DNA from: Burkholderia sp. BCC0506
Lineage (GTDB): Bacteria > Pseudomonadota > Gammaproteobacteria > Burkholderiales > Burkholderiaceae
Length of the DNA stretch: 64,000 nucleotides
Assembly: GCF_902833145.1 (NCBI RefSeq)
Contig: NZ_CADFEN010000003.1
Coordinates: forward strand, 310,001-374,000
Direction: 5' to 3'
Position 1 is the first letter of the stretch; every line of letters starts with the position of its first letter. The position numbers were made by a program, and so were the translations under genes. The notes below the pieces were generated by a model. The model had not been told where the DNA came from. It saw nothing but the letters and a program-made list of their open reading frames with translations, and ran no database searches. Shown here piece by piece: positions 10,959 through 44,398 of the stretch.

Positions 10959-12164
10959 GTGAACCCCACGACTTCCTCTGCTTCCCGCCCCGGCGGCAGC
11001 GCCACGCTGCCGCTGCTGGCGCTCGCCGCCGGCGCGTTCGGCATCGGCACGACCGAGTTCTCGCCGATGGGCCTGCTGCCCGTGATCGCCGAAGGCGTGC
11101 ACGTATCGATTCCGCAAGCCGGCATGCTGATCAGCGCGTATGCGATCGGCGTGATGGTCGGCGCGCCGCTGATGACGCTGCTGCTCGCGCGCTGGTCGCG
11201 CCGCTCCGCGCTGATCGCGCTGATGTCGATCTTCACGATCGGCAACCTGCTGTCGGCCGTCGCGCCGGACTACACGACGCTGCTGCTCGCGCGGCTCGTC
11301 ACGAGCCTCAACCACGGCGCGTTCTTCGGGCTCGGCTCGGTGGTCGCAGCCAGCCTCGTGCCGCGCGACAGGCAGGCCAGCGCGGTCGCGACGATGTTCA
11401 TGGGCCTGACGATCGCGAACGTCGGCGGCGTGCCGGCCGCGACCTGGCTCGGCCAGATCATCGGCTGGCGCATGTCGTTCGCGGCCACCGCGGGCCTCGG
11501 GCTGATCGCGATCGCCGGCCTGTTCGCCGCGCTGCCGAAGGGGCAAGCCGGCAAGATGCCCGACCTGCGCGCGGAACTGTCCGTGCTGACGCGCCCGGTC
11601 GTGCTCGGCGCGCTCGGGACGACGGTGCTCGGCGCCGGTGCGATGTTCACGCTCTATACGTACGTCGCGCCGACGCTCGACCACCTGACGGGCGCCACGC
11701 CCGGCTTCGTGACCGCGATGCTCGTGCTGATCGGCGTCGGCTTCTCGATCGGCAACATCGCGGGCGGCCGGCTGGCCGACCGCTCGCTCGACGGCACGCT
11801 GATCGGCTTCCTGTTGCTGCTGATCGCGACGATGGCCGCATTCCCGCTGCTCGCCGCCACCCACGCGGGCGCCGCCGTCACGCTGCTGGTCTGGGGAATC
11901 GCGACGTTCGCGGTCGTGCCGCCGCTGCAGATGCGCGTGATGCGCGCGGCCCACGAAGCGCCGGGGCTCGCATCGGCCGTGAACATCGGTGCGTTCAACC
12001 TCGGCAACGCGCTGGGCGCCGCTGCCGGCGGTGCGGCGATCTCGGCCGGGTTCGGCTACGCGGCGGTGCCGCTCGTCGGCGCGCTGATCGCCGCGGCCGG
12101 CCTCGCGCTCGTGATGCTGCAACTCGCGCAGCGCCGCCGCTCGCCGGCCGCCGCGCGTTCGTGA
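10959..12164 (+). CDS. MFS transporter, DHA1/AraJ-like exporter
   Basis: A roughly 401-residue, 12-helix major facilitator of the AraJ/NepI-type export group. The N-terminal half has LLALAAGAFGIGTTEFSPMGLLPVIA, the signature of these sugar, purine or drug exporters, and the first cytoplasmic loop has the basic RWSRRSAL segment. The start is taken as GTG 10959 because AGGAG lies seven bases upstream; the alternative GTG at 10926 is in frame. A terminator follows. Substrate unknown. Confidence 0.83.
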   Translation: MNPTTSSASRPGGSATLPLLALAAGAFGIGTTEFSPMGLLPVIAEGVHVSIPQAGMLISAYAIGVMVGAPLMTLLLARWSRRSALIALMSIFTIGNLLSAVAPDYTTLLLARLVTSLNHGAFFGLGSVVAASLVPRDRQASAVATMFMGLTIANVGGVPAATWLGQIIGWRMSFAATAGLGLIAIAGLFAALPKGQAGKMPDLRAELSVLTRPVVLGALGTTVLGAGAMFTLYTYVAPTLDHLTGATPGFVTAMLVLIGVGFSIGNIAGGRLADRSLDGTLIGFLLLLIATMAAFPLLAATHAGAAVTLLVWGIATFAVVPPLQMRVMRAAHEAPGLASAVNIGAFNLGNALGAAAGGAAISAGFGYAAVPLVGALIAAAGLALVMLQLAQRRRSPAAARS

Positions 12165-29832: not shown

Positions 29833-30459
29833 TCATGCGTCGGGACGGAAGATGTCGAAGCGGCTGTCGGGCTTCACGTGCACGTAGGCCGACGGGCCGC
29901 CCGCGCGAAGAATGATGCCTGCACCGAAGGTATCGAAGATACCGTCCTTCAGCAGGTCGTGGCGGATGTGGACCGCGATGACCTCGCCCAGCACCAGCGT
30001 GGCCGGCGTCTCGACGCCGTGATGATCGCGCAAGCGGATCACGTCGGTCACCTTGCATTCGAAGTTCACGCCGCTTTCCGCGACGCGCGGCACGTCGACG
30101 AGGCGCGACGGCACCGCGGTCAAGCCGCCGAGTTCGAACTCGTTCACGTCGTACGGCACGGCGGCACAGGTCTGGTTCATCCGCTCGGCGAGATCGCGCG
30201 TTGCGAGGTTCCACACGAACTCGCCGGTTTCCTGCACGTTGCGCACGCTGTCCTTCGCGGTGGTGCTCGAAAAGCCGATGATCGGCGGGCGATAGTTGAA
30301 CGCGTTGAAGAAGCTGTACGGCGCGAGGTTCAGCGTGCCGTCGCTGCCGCGGGATGAAATCCAGCCGATCGGGCGCGGGCCGATGATCGCGTTCAACGGA
30401 TCGTGCGGCAGGCCGTGGCCTTGCGACGGTTCGTAATAGTGATGGGTCGAGTCGGTCAT
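29833..30459 (-). CDS. flavin reductase-like (DIM6/NTAB) family protein
   Basis: A 208-residue FMN-binding split-barrel protein. PHDPLNAIIGPRPIGWISS (residues about 19-37) and NLAPYSFFNAFNYRPPIIGFSS are the family signature that binds flavin phosphate. GEFVWNLATRDLAERMNQT follows. Such proteins reduce flavins for monooxygenases or act as small flavoenzymes. Single gene with its own terminator; no monooxygenase neighbour. Confidence 0.85.
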   Translation of the reverse strand: MTDSTHHYYEPSQGHGLPHDPLNAIIGPRPIGWISSRGSDGTLNLAPYSFFNAFNYRPPIIGFSSTTAKDSVRNVQETGEFVWNLATRDLAERMNQTCAAVPYDVNEFELGGLTAVPSRLVDVPRVAESGVNFECKVTDVIRLRDHHGVETPATLVLGEVIAVHIRHDLLKDGIFDTFGAGIILRAGGPSAYVHVKPDSRFDIFRPDA

Positions 30460-30705: not shown

Positions 30706-31039
30706 TGGTGCCGGGGACCGGACTCGAACCGGCAAGCCAGTTAAGGCGGCGGATTTTCGTCACACTGCTTCTTTCAAAGCCGGCGTCGCGTGCGCGAACC
30801 GTTCGTGCGCTGGACTATGCCTTCACCGTCGCGTGCGGGCGTGACCGCTGCCCATGCGCCTTAGGTGCCCCCCGTCTAGTCTCTACACCTTCCTCGCGGA
30901 TGCCGCGAGGCTTGGCTCGGCGTTGCCTCGATGCGCGCATCAGGGGTTTCGCCGAATTTGAAGGGTTCTGCACCGACCGTTTCCGGCCGGGCACTCAATC
31001 GTTTAAGTCCGCTATGTTTACCAATTTCATCACCCCGGC
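30706..31039 (-). tRNA. tRNA-Leu(UAA), interrupted by a group I intron
   Basis: Exon 1 is 31039-31005 (35 nt) and exon 2 is 30757-30706 (52 nt, CCA encoded). Joined they give an 87-nt tRNA: acceptor GCCGGGG/CCCCGGC with discriminator A, D-arm with pairs ATG/CAT around AAATTGGTAAA, anticodon stem GCGGA/TCCGC with loop CTTAAAA (anticodon UAA), a long variable arm as in tRNA-Leu, and T-arm GCCGG-TTCGAGT-CCGGT. The gene is cut after U34, the first anticodon base, exactly where cyanobacterial and plastid tRNA-Leu(UAA) genes carry their intron. Without splicing the tRNA cannot fold its anticodon arm. A terminator follows. Confidence 0.92.
30758..31004 (-). ncRNA. group I self-splicing intron (247 nt) in tRNA-Leu(UAA)
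   Basis: Numbered 1-247 from 31004 down to 30758. It begins AAACGATTGAG; GAG at 9-11 pairs with exon CUU, giving the U-G pair that marks the 5' splice site (P1). P4 is TCGGCG (50-55) with CGCCGA (83-88). A perfect stem CCTCGCGG/CCGCGAGG (95-102/106-113) fits P6. The R core GTGTAGAGACTAGACGG starts at 118 and the S core GAAGGCATAGTCC at 181; GACTA (124-128) pairs with TAGTC (188-192) as P7. CGAAC/GTTCG forms P9. The last base is G247, as required. It closely resembles the cyanobacterial tRNA-Leu introns. No homing-endonuclease ORF. Confidence 0.92.
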
Positions 31040-31060: not shown

Positions 31061-31304
31061 CCACTGCTGGCGCATGCGTTCCCTTATTCCGCGCGCGCCC
31101 TATCGTGCCCCAGCCATCGTCGCACCGCTTCGTCCTGCGCATTCGGCACCGATACGACACCGATGCCACACGGCCGACGATTTCGTCCCGCGCCGCACCC
31201 TGCCCCGATACAATCGACCGCGCGTCGTCCGACGGCCCCAACCGTCTGACGTTTGTGTCGTGCTTTTCACGAAACAAGCGTCGCGTGCGTCATCGCGAAG
31301 TCAC

Positions 31305-31339
31305 AAACGTTTTCGATAATTTCCCGGCCGAAAACGTTT
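31305..31339 (+). promoter_or_regulatory. two LacI-family operators upstream of the LacI gene
   Basis: AAACGTTTTCG (31305-31315) and CGAAAACGTTT (31329-31339) are an exact inverted repeat. Each contains the palindrome AAACGTTT with a central CG, the classic core of LacI/PurR-type operators; core centres are 27 bp apart. They lie 16-50 bases before the LacI start codon, so the regulator probably represses itself and perhaps the transport operon behind it. Confidence 0.7.
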
Positions 31340-31354
31340 ACATCGCGTTATTTC

Positions 31355-32380
31355 ATGACCTCGACCATCAAGGACGTCGCCGCCCTCGCGGGCTTCTCGA
31401 TCGCCACCGTTTCGCGTGCGATCAACGCACCGCATACCGTCAGCCCCGCCACGCTGCAGACGATCCGCACCGCGATCGACACGCTGCAATTCCGCCCGAG
31501 CCCGCTCGGCCGGCAACTGCGCGGCGAGCGCACGCGGCTCGTCGGCGTCGTCGTGCCGACGCTGTCGAACCCGGTGTTCGCCGACTGCCTGCAAGGCATC
31601 GACGCGCTCGCGACCGCGGCCGGTTTCAAGCTGATCCTGATGACGACCGAATACGACGCGGCGCGCGAGCGTCATGCGATCGAGACGCTGCGCGAGCAGC
31701 GCGTCGAAGGGCTGATCCTCACCGTCGCCGATGCGGATACGCACCCGCTGCTCGACATGCTCGATCGCGACGGCCCGCATTACGTGCTGATGCACAACGA
31801 CACGCAGCGCCGTCCGTCGGTGTCGGTCGACAACCGCCGCGCCGCCTATGACGGCGTGCGGCTGCTGACCGCGCGCGGCCACCGCCGCGTGCTGATGCTG
31901 GCCGGTTCGCTCGCCGCGTCGGATCGCGCACGCCAGCGTCATCTCGGTTATGCGCAAGCGCTCGACGAAGCCGGCGTCGCCCCGCTGCCGCCCGTCGAAG
32001 TCGACTTCACCGCGCCCGAGCTGCCCGACGCAGTGCTCGCGCATCTCACCGCGCAGGCCACGCGTCCGACCGCCCTCTTCTGCAGCAACGACCTGCTCGC
32101 GATGGTCGTGATGCGCGGCCTGCGCCGCGCGGGTTTCTCGATCCCCGACGACCTGTCGGTGCTCGGCTTCGACGGGATCGCGATCGGCGAGCTGCTCGCG
32201 CCGCCGCTCGCGAGCGTCGCGACGCCGAACCGCGACATCGGCCGTCACGCGTGGCAGCGTCTCGTCGAATGCATCGGCGGCGCAGCGATCGAGCGCACGT
32301 CGATGATCCTGCCGCATGCGGTGCGCGATGGTGCGACGGTCGCACCGCCGGCCGCCGACCTGCAACTGCGCGAGGCCTGA
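31355..32380 (+). CDS. LacI-family transcriptional repressor
   Basis: A 341-residue LacI-type regulator. The N-terminal helix-turn-helix plus hinge is TIKDVAALAGFSIATVSRAI (residues 3-22) and LGRQLRGERTRLVGVVVPTLSNPVF. The effector domain has FCSNDLLAMVVMRGL and VLGFDGI as usual. ATG 31355 gives the family-normal start; the longer frame from 31253 would run through the operators. It precedes an ABC importer operon by 79 bases on the same strand, so it probably senses that system's substrate. Confidence 0.88.
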   Translation: MTSTIKDVAALAGFSIATVSRAINAPHTVSPATLQTIRTAIDTLQFRPSPLGRQLRGERTRLVGVVVPTLSNPVFADCLQGIDALATAAGFKLILMTTEYDAARERHAIETLREQRVEGLILTVADADTHPLLDMLDRDGPHYVLMHNDTQRRPSVSVDNRRAAYDGVRLLTARGHRRVLMLAGSLAASDRARQRHLGYAQALDEAGVAPLPPVEVDFTAPELPDAVLAHLTAQATRPTALFCSNDLLAMVVMRGLRRAGFSIPDDLSVLGFDGIAIGELLAPPLASVATPNRDIGRHAWQRLVECIGGAAIERTSMILPHAVRDGATVAPPAADLQLREA

Positions 32381-44263: not shown

Positions 44264-44274
44264 GTGCCCTTGCT

Positions 44275-44374
44275 AACGCGGGGGTCCTGCAATGCGCTCG
44301 GTCAAACAGCCGGCATTGCGGGTGAGAAATACCCTTTGAACCTGATCTGGATAATGCCAGCGCAGGGAAGCGTA
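44275..44374 (+). ncRNA. TPP riboswitch (THI element)
   Basis: Thiamine-pyrophosphate aptamer in the thiC leader. ACGC (44276-44279) pairs with GCGT (44370-44373) as P1; GGGGTCCTGC opens the pyrimidine arm; GGTGAGAAATACCC and CCTGATCTGGATAATGCCAG are the conserved aminopyrimidine- and pyrophosphate-binding segments, ending CGCAGGGAAGCG. The 135 bases from aptamer to start codon show no clear intrinsic terminator, so control may be translational or Rho-dependent. Confidence 0.95.
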
Positions 44375-44398
44375 CGGATTTCGCCGCCATCCTTCTGA

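What the first reader, a model, noticed from the sequence alone, without database searches (positions are those of the whole stretch)
30706..31039. Group I intron splitting tRNA-Leu(UAA), of the cyanobacterial/plastid type, in a Burkholderia-like genome
Seen directly: two tRNA halves 247 nt apart that join into a perfect 87-nt tRNA-Leu(UAA); a break after U34; intron start AAACGATTGAG with GAG pairing to exon CUU; R and S core sequences (GTGTAGAGACTAGACGG and GAAGGCATAGTCC) with P7 pairing GACTA/TAGTC; terminal G. Established: tRNA-Leu(UAA) introns at this very position are known from cyanobacteria and plastids, while tRNA introns in proteobacteria are best known from tRNA-Ile of Azoarcus and tRNA-Arg of Agrobacterium. 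Inference: shared site and core sequence mean common descent or transfer between phyla. A standard tRNA scan may miss this gene, making the genome look as if it lacks tRNA-Leu(UAA).
Basis: partly seen in the sequence, partly recalled or inferred. Interest (0 to 1): 0.88.

Follow-up and report, generated by a model that had tools for sequence, protein, structure and literature searches.

The report
Self-splicing intron in Burkholderia leucine tRNA
A Burkholderia genome carries its only gene for one rare leucine transfer RNA split by a small RNA that should cut itself out; the split is shared across the genus, belongs to a proteobacterial intron family rather than being a recent gift from cyanobacteria, and is missed by a default tRNA scan.

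Summary
Window 31039..30706 (minus) is a tRNA-Leu(UAA) gene split after U34 by a 247-nt group I intron. Spliced, it is a perfect 87-nt tRNA-Leu(UAA). Rfam's group I model matches (38.6 bits, E 1.8e-8) but below its cut-off of 50, so default Rfam and default ARAGORN scans both miss it. Of 65 pairs of the group I fold, 25 show changes on both sides in 43 related introns. The genome (7.29 Mb, 100% complete) shows no uninterrupted tRNA-Leu(UAA). 61 of 61 sampled Burkholderia genomes have the intron (49 opened and confirmed), and its divergence follows a flanking gene (rho 0.88): vertical inheritance. Sister genera have filled and empty sites; gamma- and alphaproteobacteria have it sporadically. 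'Cyanobacterial/plastid type' is half right: the site is shared, but the core is about 52% identical to cyanobacterial tRNA-Leu introns against 59-67% to proteobacterial tRNA-Ile introns, and cyanobacterial introns form a distant clade (100/100). No sign of recent transfer between phyla; deeper kinship is unresolved. Known kind, apparently undescribed member. By-product: a similar split tRNA gene lies in 624 of 5,426 complete E. coli genomes, mostly on plasmids, unannotated in the five rows seen.

The parts
31005..31039 (-). 5' exon of tRNA-Leu(UAA), 35 nt, ends with U34
30758..31004 (-). 247-nt group I intron, AAACGATTGAG...GTGTGACG, terminal (omega) G at 30758
30706..30757 (-). 3' exon of tRNA-Leu(UAA), 52 nt, with encoded CCA
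30993..31008 (-). P1: exon ACUU (31008-31005) pairs with intron GAGU (30996-30993), U.G at the splice site; A-U extension of two pairs; internal guide GAG
   Evidence: 98.4% of cells paired in 43 sequences
30973..30990 (-). P2 hairpin with GAAA loop
   Evidence: 6 of 7 pairs with changes on both sides; GAAA invariant in 43 rows
30960..30965 (-). P3 5' strand (pairs with 30873-30868)
30916..30956 (-). P4 (30956-30950 with 30922-30916), P5 and P5a between
30888..30915 (-). P6 and P6a
   Evidence: 8 of 8 P6a pairs with changes on both sides, 81% of cells paired
30877..30881 (-). P7 5' strand GACTA (R element)
30868..30873 (-). P3 3' strand
30824..30867 (-). P8 (base 30867-30864 with 30827-30824)
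30813..30817 (-). P7 3' strand TAGTC (S element)
30761..30809 (-). P9.0 (30809-30805 with 30765-30761), P9.1, and P9 with GAAA loop
30632..30667 (-). likely intrinsic terminator of the tRNA gene: stem CCCGCGAG/CTCGCGGG, 10-nt loop, T-run
   Evidence: read by eye (loops of 3-8 only) did not list it
29833..30459 (-). neighbour: flavin-reductase-like protein (PF01613)
31253..32380 (+). neighbour: LacI-family regulator (PF00356), used as syntenic marker

Best explanation
[quoted passage not shown] Shown by sequence: the two exons join into a perfect tRNA; the intron has P1 with the U.G splice-site pair, P3 to P9, the G-binding P7 and a terminal G; the fold is under selection; the genus keeps it by descent. 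Inferred: the transcript folds, a free guanosine bound in P7 attacks after U34, the freed U34 attacks after the terminal G, the exons join and the intron leaves. The intron has no room for an endonuclease gene, so it is now inherited with the chromosome rather than moving by homing. Its likely effect on the cell is neutral: a persistent, well-spliced insertion that also hides the gene from default tRNA finders.
For: Spliced tRNA and intron call; RF00028 E 1.8e-8 over the full model; every pair of the 13 helices kept is standard in the window; covariation 0 of 500 shuffles, 25 of 65 pairs with double changes in 43 introns, and double changes across 83 introns of seven groups; no uninterrupted tRNA-Leu(UAA) found in the 100% complete genome, nearest is tRNA-Leu(CAA) at 80%; 61 of 61 genomes of the genus match the intron at 77-100%, 49 of these opened and all 49 confirmed as split tRNA-Leu(taa) by ARAGORN, the other 12 by DNA match only; intron divergence follows that of the neighbouring LacI gene, Spearman 0.88, 0 of 999 permutations, 41 loci; same LacI neighbour beside uninterrupted genes in a sister genus.
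Against: Splicing was not observed; no RNA data could be searched. The Rfam score is below the curated cut-off (38.6 against 50). No promoter-like site was found by the simple scan. 12 of the 61 genus genomes rest on the DNA match alone. The LacI marker was found within 1.5 kb in 22 of 30 genus loci, not in the other 8.
Confidence: 0.9

Rival explanations
1. The intron came to Burkholderia from cyanobacteria or plastids by a fairly recent transfer.
For: Same insertion site after U34. In the 101-row tree, a grouping of cyanobacterial with Burkholderiaceae introns is not rejected (p-AU 0.54), because the place where the long cyanobacterial branch joins is not resolved.
Against: Core identity about 52% to cyanobacterial introns, the lowest of any group compared; cyanobacterial clade 100/100 on a long branch; different P7 pair; related introns in many proteobacteria, and vertical inheritance in the genus.
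Confidence: 0.03
2. Dead gene: the split copy is silent and another tRNA reads UUA.
For: UUA is almost unused: 3 of 13,561 codons in 38 window genes chosen by GC3, so a loss might be tolerated.
Against: Intron kept in 61 of 61 genomes, exons intact in the 49 of them opened, covarying fold; no other tRNA-Leu(UAA) found; a CAA anticodon would not be expected to read UUA (established decoding rules).
Confidence: 0.02
3. The intron splices only with protein help or poorly, i.e. it is group I by descent but not an efficient self-splicer.
For: Group I introns often use host proteins (review PMC3984707, passages seen); the score is under the Rfam cut-off.
Against: Small, GC-rich, with L2 and L9 GAAA loops and all core helices, as in the self-splicing Azoarcus intron (that comparison from recall); pairing kept at 96.5%.
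Confidence: 0.12
4. Intron-gated rare tRNA: splicing needs free guanosine or GTP, so supply of the tRNA for the rarest leucine codon could follow GTP level, giving a switch for the few UUA-containing genes, much as bldA controls UUA genes in Streptomyces.
For: UUA is extremely rare here; the intron sits in this tRNA throughout the genus sample; bldA precedent (PMC2000904, abstract start seen in the listing).
Against: No data on splicing rates or on UUA genes; 52 of 200 genomes of the family have a near-identical uninterrupted gene; neutral persistence explains the same facts.
Confidence: 0.05

Closest known systems
Azoarcus BH72 pre-tRNA-Ile group I intron (IC3)
   Same: Proteobacterial host lineage, size of 200-250 nt, P2 with GAAA loop, R/S core, anticodon-loop site (sequence, site and GTDB order of Azoarcus itself recalled, not fetched; five Azoarcus-like tRNA-Ile introns inserted after CAU were fetched and compared)
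   Different: Host tRNA is Leu(UAA) not Ile(CAU); break after U34, not after the anticodon; guide GAG instead of GUG; core identity to the five 58.8-66.7%
Cyanobacterial and plastid tRNA-Leu(UAA) intron
   Same: Same host tRNA, same break after U34, same guide GAG, same overall fold (plastid introns not fetched)
   Different: Core only about 52% identical; P7 pair C-G instead of A-U, a P4 pair A-U instead of G-C; separate clade
tRNA-Leu(UAA) intron of a gammaproteobacterium from the deep subsurface (Vepritskiy et al. 2002, recalled; not held)
   Same: Proteobacterial tRNA-Leu(UAA) intron; 15 gammaproteobacterial genomes outside Burkholderiales in the class sample have one at this site
tRNA-Ile2 group I introns of Acidovorax and Burkholderia (tRNAscan-SE 2.0 paper, PMC8450103, passage seen)
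   Same: Same genus, group I intron in a tRNA missed by a standard scan
   Different: Different tRNA. Of 7 genus genomes with a second, weaker intron match I opened 5: tRNA-Ile(CAU) in 2 (G055, G029), a Thr-like and an Arg tRNA in one each, no split tRNA in one

Membership tests
Group I introns (Rfam RF00028) | match to the family covariance model | tested here: inconclusive
   38.6 bits, E 1.8e-8, whole model, but under the curated cut-off of 50
Group I introns (Rfam RF00028) | core helices P3-P8 with the P3/P7 pseudoknot | tested here: met
   all pairs standard in the window; changes on both sides in P3, P4, P6, P7, P8 over 83 introns; paired in 98-100% of cells per core helix in 43 close ones
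Group I introns (Rfam RF00028) | U.G pair at the 5' splice site in P1 and terminal G | tested here: met
   U-1.G in 42 of 43, U-A in 1; terminal G invariant in 43 rows
Group I introns (Rfam RF00028) | guanosine-initiated self-splicing | not testable with these tools
   needs RNA work
Subgroup IC3 (tRNA introns) | GAAA loops on P2 and P9, small P5 without P5abc, site in the anticodon loop (criteria recalled) | tested here: met
   L2 GAAA invariant in 43 rows; L9 GAAA in the window, its A's invariant and its G in at least 90% of rows; site. No IC3-specific model was available
Proteobacterial tRNA-intron lineage | groups with proteobacterial introns apart from cyanobacterial ones | tested here: met
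   100/100 split of 9 cyanobacterial-type rows from 71 others and from 92 others. In the first, 83-row tree a very long Asp row (L071) sat among the cyanobacterial rows; it was then dropped
Cyanobacterial/plastid tRNA-Leu(UAA) intron | same insertion site after U34 | tested here: met
Cyanobacterial/plastid tRNA-Leu(UAA) intron | closest kinship of the intron core to cyanobacterial introns | tested here: not met
   identity about 52%, lowest of the groups; separate clade; P7 pair differs. Attachment point of that clade unresolved
Functional tRNA-Leu(UAA) gene | spliced product folds as tRNA-Leu with anticodon UAA and is the sole such gene | tested here: met

The most novel reading that the evidence does not exclude
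The U34 site of tRNA-Leu(UAA) is the ancestral home of bacterial IC3 introns: one very old tRNA-Leu intron, older than the split of cyanobacteria and proteobacteria or spread between them long ago, has been kept or lost lineage by lineage, became fixed in Burkholderia, and gave rise within proteobacteria to the introns in tRNA-Ile (including the Azoarcus type), Arg, Ser and Thr by moving to new anticodon loops.
Probability: 0.3. Interest if true: 0.65.

Novelty: new member of a known kind. Interest (0 to 1): 0.5.

Why it matters
It shows that the only tRNA-Leu(UAA) gene of a much-sequenced genus is split by a ribozyme and escapes a default scan, so a genome can wrongly look as if it lacked this tRNA. 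It turns the textbook picture of a few scattered proteobacterial tRNA introns into a large, testable lineage with filled and empty sites in sister genera, which is what is needed to measure gain, loss and switching of host tRNA. Ten full-text searches gave no paper, among those whose listing or passages I saw, that describes this Burkholderia intron; only open-licence PMC papers were searched and most hits were seen as listings. The similar split tRNA in E. coli and related plasmids is an unplanned second reason to look.

Tried and rejected
RF00028 as a survey tool was weak under its stricter filters (36 of 349 genomes of the order matched; both same-genus genomes listed, G000 and G017, did); junction patterns worked better. 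The pattern ended in a purine and therefore missed the window's own gene and other introns followed by T; I use it only as a list of uninterrupted genes and a lower bound for introns. One hit (L256) is an uninterrupted gene and a chance match.

Tree results that disagree: in the 80-row set, holding all tRNA-Leu introns together is rejected (p-AU 0.002) and so is holding the non-cyanobacterial ones together (0.0024); after adding 14 gamma, 6 alpha and 1 beta rows the first test gives 0.094, and all beta tRNA-Leu together 0.079. Cyanobacteria plus Burkholderiaceae as one side of a branch is not rejected (0.54), cyanobacteria plus Burkholderia neither (0.46). So only the distinctness and distance of the cyanobacterial clade is claimed. 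Rows dropped or never used: three long rows (L071, L075, L129) left the second and third trees, and L071 had sat among the cyanobacterial rows in the first; L070, L074, L076, L077, L080, L082, L084, L098 and L131 never entered a tree (boundaries, host tRNA or length unclear, or near-copies); of 16 cyanobacterial-type split genes confirmed I used 9; the 690-nt gamma introns L238 and L242 were left out.

Considered and rejected: chance resemblance, pseudogene, archaeal-type or group II intron (the group I fold is complete). A covariance model of my own was not built, since the pair counts settled the structure. A guessed P8 extension did not pair in the window and was dropped. The first pair count failed on a string two characters short, redone.

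Full report
What is there. On the minus strand, window 31039..30706, lies a tRNA-Leu(UAA) gene in two pieces: a 35-nt 5' exon ending in U34, a 247-nt insert, and a 52-nt 3' exon with CCA. Joined, they are an 87-nt tRNA that ARAGORN calls tRNA-Leu(taa) with all arms paired; with introns allowed ARAGORN finds the split gene at the same place. By default it finds no tRNA in the window. Rfam's group I model is silent at its cut-off but matches the insert over the whole model at 38.6 bits, E 1.8e-8, when asked by E-value.

Structure. I wrote out the group I fold from the sequence (P1, P2, P3, P4, P5/P5a, P6/P6a, P7, P8, P9.0, P9.1, P9; 65 pairs). All are standard pairs in the window (one guessed P8 extension was not and was dropped). 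On 43 tRNA-Leu introns of Burkholderia and relatives, 96.5% of 2,779 cells pair, 25 pairs change on both sides, and 0 of 500 shuffles reach the observed value on any measure; partners slid by 1 to 3 columns give 32-44%. The weakest helix is the distal P6a, 81% paired. P7 never varies in that set, but across 83 introns of wider origin its last pair is A-U in 40 of 44 beta tRNA-Leu introns, C-G in 9 of 9 cyanobacterial-type ones and G-C in 10 of 10 tRNA-Ile introns of a second kind. P1 has the U.G pair at the splice site in 42 of 43 rows. At 247 nt the intron leaves no room for a homing endonuclease gene.

Sole copy. The genome (G000, 7,291,782 bases, 45 contigs, 100% complete) has one RF00028 match at E up to 0.001. 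A search with the joined tRNA at E up to 10 finds the two halves and, next best over most of its length, tRNA-Leu(CAA) at 80%; no uninterrupted tRNA-Leu(UAA). UUA is 3 of 13,561 codons in 38 window genes picked by GC3, against 725 CUG.

Organism. Named relatives place the window near Burkholderia cenocepacia and other members of the B. cepacia complex: 95.2% over 4,600 aligned bases to B. cenocepacia NCTC13227.

Genus. 61 of 61 sampled genomes of the genus, own included, match the intron with E of 1e-53 or better, identity 77-100% (the sample is drawn from a larger group). I opened the locus in 49 of these 61 and in one genus genome outside the sample; all 50 give split tRNA-Leu(taa); the other 12 rest on the DNA match. 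In a family survey with the joined tRNA at E up to 1e-13, the best match in each of the 23 same-genus genomes listed is the broken one (query 36-87), while 52 of 200 genomes show an uninterrupted match of at least 89% identity over nearly the whole tRNA, none of them in the genus (the place list was cut at about 2e-14, below these). A LacI-family gene flanks the tRNA within 1.5 kb in 22 of 30 genus loci and not in the other 8. Of 12 loci opened in other genera, 5 have it, all of genus code g20: three with the uninterrupted gene and two with the intron; one of the g20 genomes has the contig length of P. kururiensis. So one neighbourhood exists with empty and with filled site. Over 41 Burkholderia, Paraburkholderia and Trinickia loci with a usable LacI gene (loci without one and exact duplicates dropped), intron distance and LacI distance correlate at 0.88, 0 of 999 permutations. 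I take this as vertical inheritance.

Wider spread. In the family, a junction pattern with up to one mismatch hit 94 of 249 genomes, noise included; of its hits in other genera I fetched 20 likely ones and all 20 are split leucine tRNAs, 19 with anticodon UAA and one CAA. In the order, most tRNA-Leu(UAA) genes that a 5'-exon pattern found in 132 of 300 genomes are uninterrupted, with introns scattered; that pattern misses many introns. In the class, 16 of 258 genomes including the own match a strict junction pattern, and the 15 others are all split tRNAs by ARAGORN, one with a shifted boundary and the label Ser. In the phylum sample 10 of 279 match: own, one of the same order, one of the same class, six from outside the class, which are split tRNAs (three with shifted boundary and the label Phe), and one false hit. 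A named scan gave 83 stretches: 63 are split tRNA-Leu by ARAGORN, 5 more are recognisable but cut by an end, and in 15 no split tRNA was found. Among the 68 are Burkholderia, Paraburkholderia, Trinickia, Niveibacterium, Gallionellaceae, Kiloniella, Bradyrhizobium, Methylocystis, Rhodobacterales, Nostoc and other cyanobacteria, one Acidobacteriota MAG, and one MAG labelled Gracilibacteria whose intron is cyanobacterial in the trees.

Kinship. The trees use 168-171 core columns, P1 and 3' end left out so that the site cannot drive them. The nine cyanobacterial-type introns are one clade at 100/100 on a long branch, with all proteobacterial rows in the tree, whatever their tRNA, on the other side (80 rows; 101 rows). 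The first tree, with three very long rows in it, had a 99/99 branch setting 73 non-cyanobacterial rows apart but placed the Asp row L071 among the cyanobacterial ones. Identity to the window core: cyanobacteria 49.7-52.8%, tRNA-Ile after CAU 58.8-66.7%, tRNA-Ile before C34 59.3-65.5%, alpha tRNA-Leu 62.5-77.3%, beta tRNA-Leu outside Burkholderia 61.4-85.1%. A single tRNA-Leu clade was rejected in the 80-row set (p 0.002) but not in the 101-row set (p 0.094), and where the cyanobacterial branch joins is unresolved. I conclude: no sign of recent exchange with cyanobacteria; old common descent of the site is possible and not settled.

How it works. Shown: anatomy, conservation, sole copy. Inferred from the known chemistry of group I introns: guanosine binds in P7, attacks after U34, U34 attacks after the terminal G, the exons join. 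P10 may form between the first exon bases AA after the splice and the UU before the guide.

Place in what is known. It is a group I intron of the tRNA (IC3) kind. A review seen in passages names cyanobacteria and a few alpha- and betaproteobacteria as hosts of tRNA group I introns (PMC4033280), and the tRNAscan-SE 2.0 paper, in a passage seen, names tRNA-Ile2 introns in Acidovorax and Burkholderia but not this one (PMC8450103). A gammaproteobacterial tRNA-Leu(UAA) intron was published in 2002 (recalled; not held), so the combination of tRNA and phylum is not new. What appears undescribed, as far as the ten searches go, is its fixation across the Burkholderia sample, the empty and filled sites in sister genera, and its place in the proteobacterial lineage.

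By-products are listed under Noticed in passing; the most striking is a split leucine-type tRNA gene in 1,257 of 72,556 plasmid records and 624 of 5,426 complete E. coli genomes.

Noticed in passing
L262:2458-2756 (NZ_CP072528.1), L263 and L261: Plasmids of Escherichia, Klebsiella, Salmonella, Acinetobacter and others carry a leucine-type tRNA gene (type read by eye) split by a roughly 220-nt group I intron (RF00028 36.8 bits, E 1.2e-6, under the cut-off of 50), with a break after ACTT as in the window; ARAGORN misreads its boundary and anticodon. At least 80% of the 331-nt stretch is in 1,257 of 72,556 plasmid records and in 624 of 5,426 complete E. coli genomes (670 places: 589 on plasmids, 81 on chromosomes). 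No feature is annotated under it in the 5 E. coli rows seen; the plasmid gene table lists no RNA genes, so it cannot tell. In 2 of 3 records opened it lies beside aac(3)-IId; in the third an IS6 transposase stands there. No paper held both 'tmrB' and 'group I intron'.
   Followed up: partly
L260:1378-1689 (Gordonia phage Daredevil, NC_048021.1): A phage tRNA-Lys(UUU) gene split by a 238-nt insert with a group I-like core (ARAGORN; no Rfam match at 0.01). The 2014 review (PMC3984707, passage) says phage introns known then were all in protein genes. Two records of this one phage, plus three partial matches in other phage records.
   Followed up: partly
   Followed up: partly
L106:328-646: A leucine tRNA with anticodon CAA split at the same position in a Burkholderiaceae relative with a 1.2-Mb genome, which suggests movement between leucine tRNAs.
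   Followed up: no
L238:1610-2074 (-), L242:867-1421 (+): Two gammaproteobacterial tRNA-Leu introns of about 690 nt hold an HNH-type ORF on the strand opposite to the tRNA (Pfam HNH_3, E 5e-4, under the cut-off, and 2e-5, at the cut-off), a possible homing endonuclease.
   Followed up: partly
L092, L096, L097, L121, L122, L134-L138: A second kind of intron in Burkholderiales, apparently in tRNA-Ile(CAU) before C34 (boundaries read by eye; ARAGORN labels vary), forming its own clade (100/100) with P7 pair G-C.
   Followed up: partly
L119, L120, L130, L132, L071, L075, L080: Further Burkholderiales split tRNAs, labelled Thr, Arg, Ser, Asp and Asn by ARAGORN.
   Followed up: no
L222:3061-3145 and about 11004-11053: In G206 an uninterrupted tRNA-Leu(UAA) and, 8 kb away, a copy of its 3' half only: looks like the scar of an element integrated in the tRNA.
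   Followed up: no
window 44270-44386 (+): TPP riboswitch, 64.7 bits.
   Followed up: no
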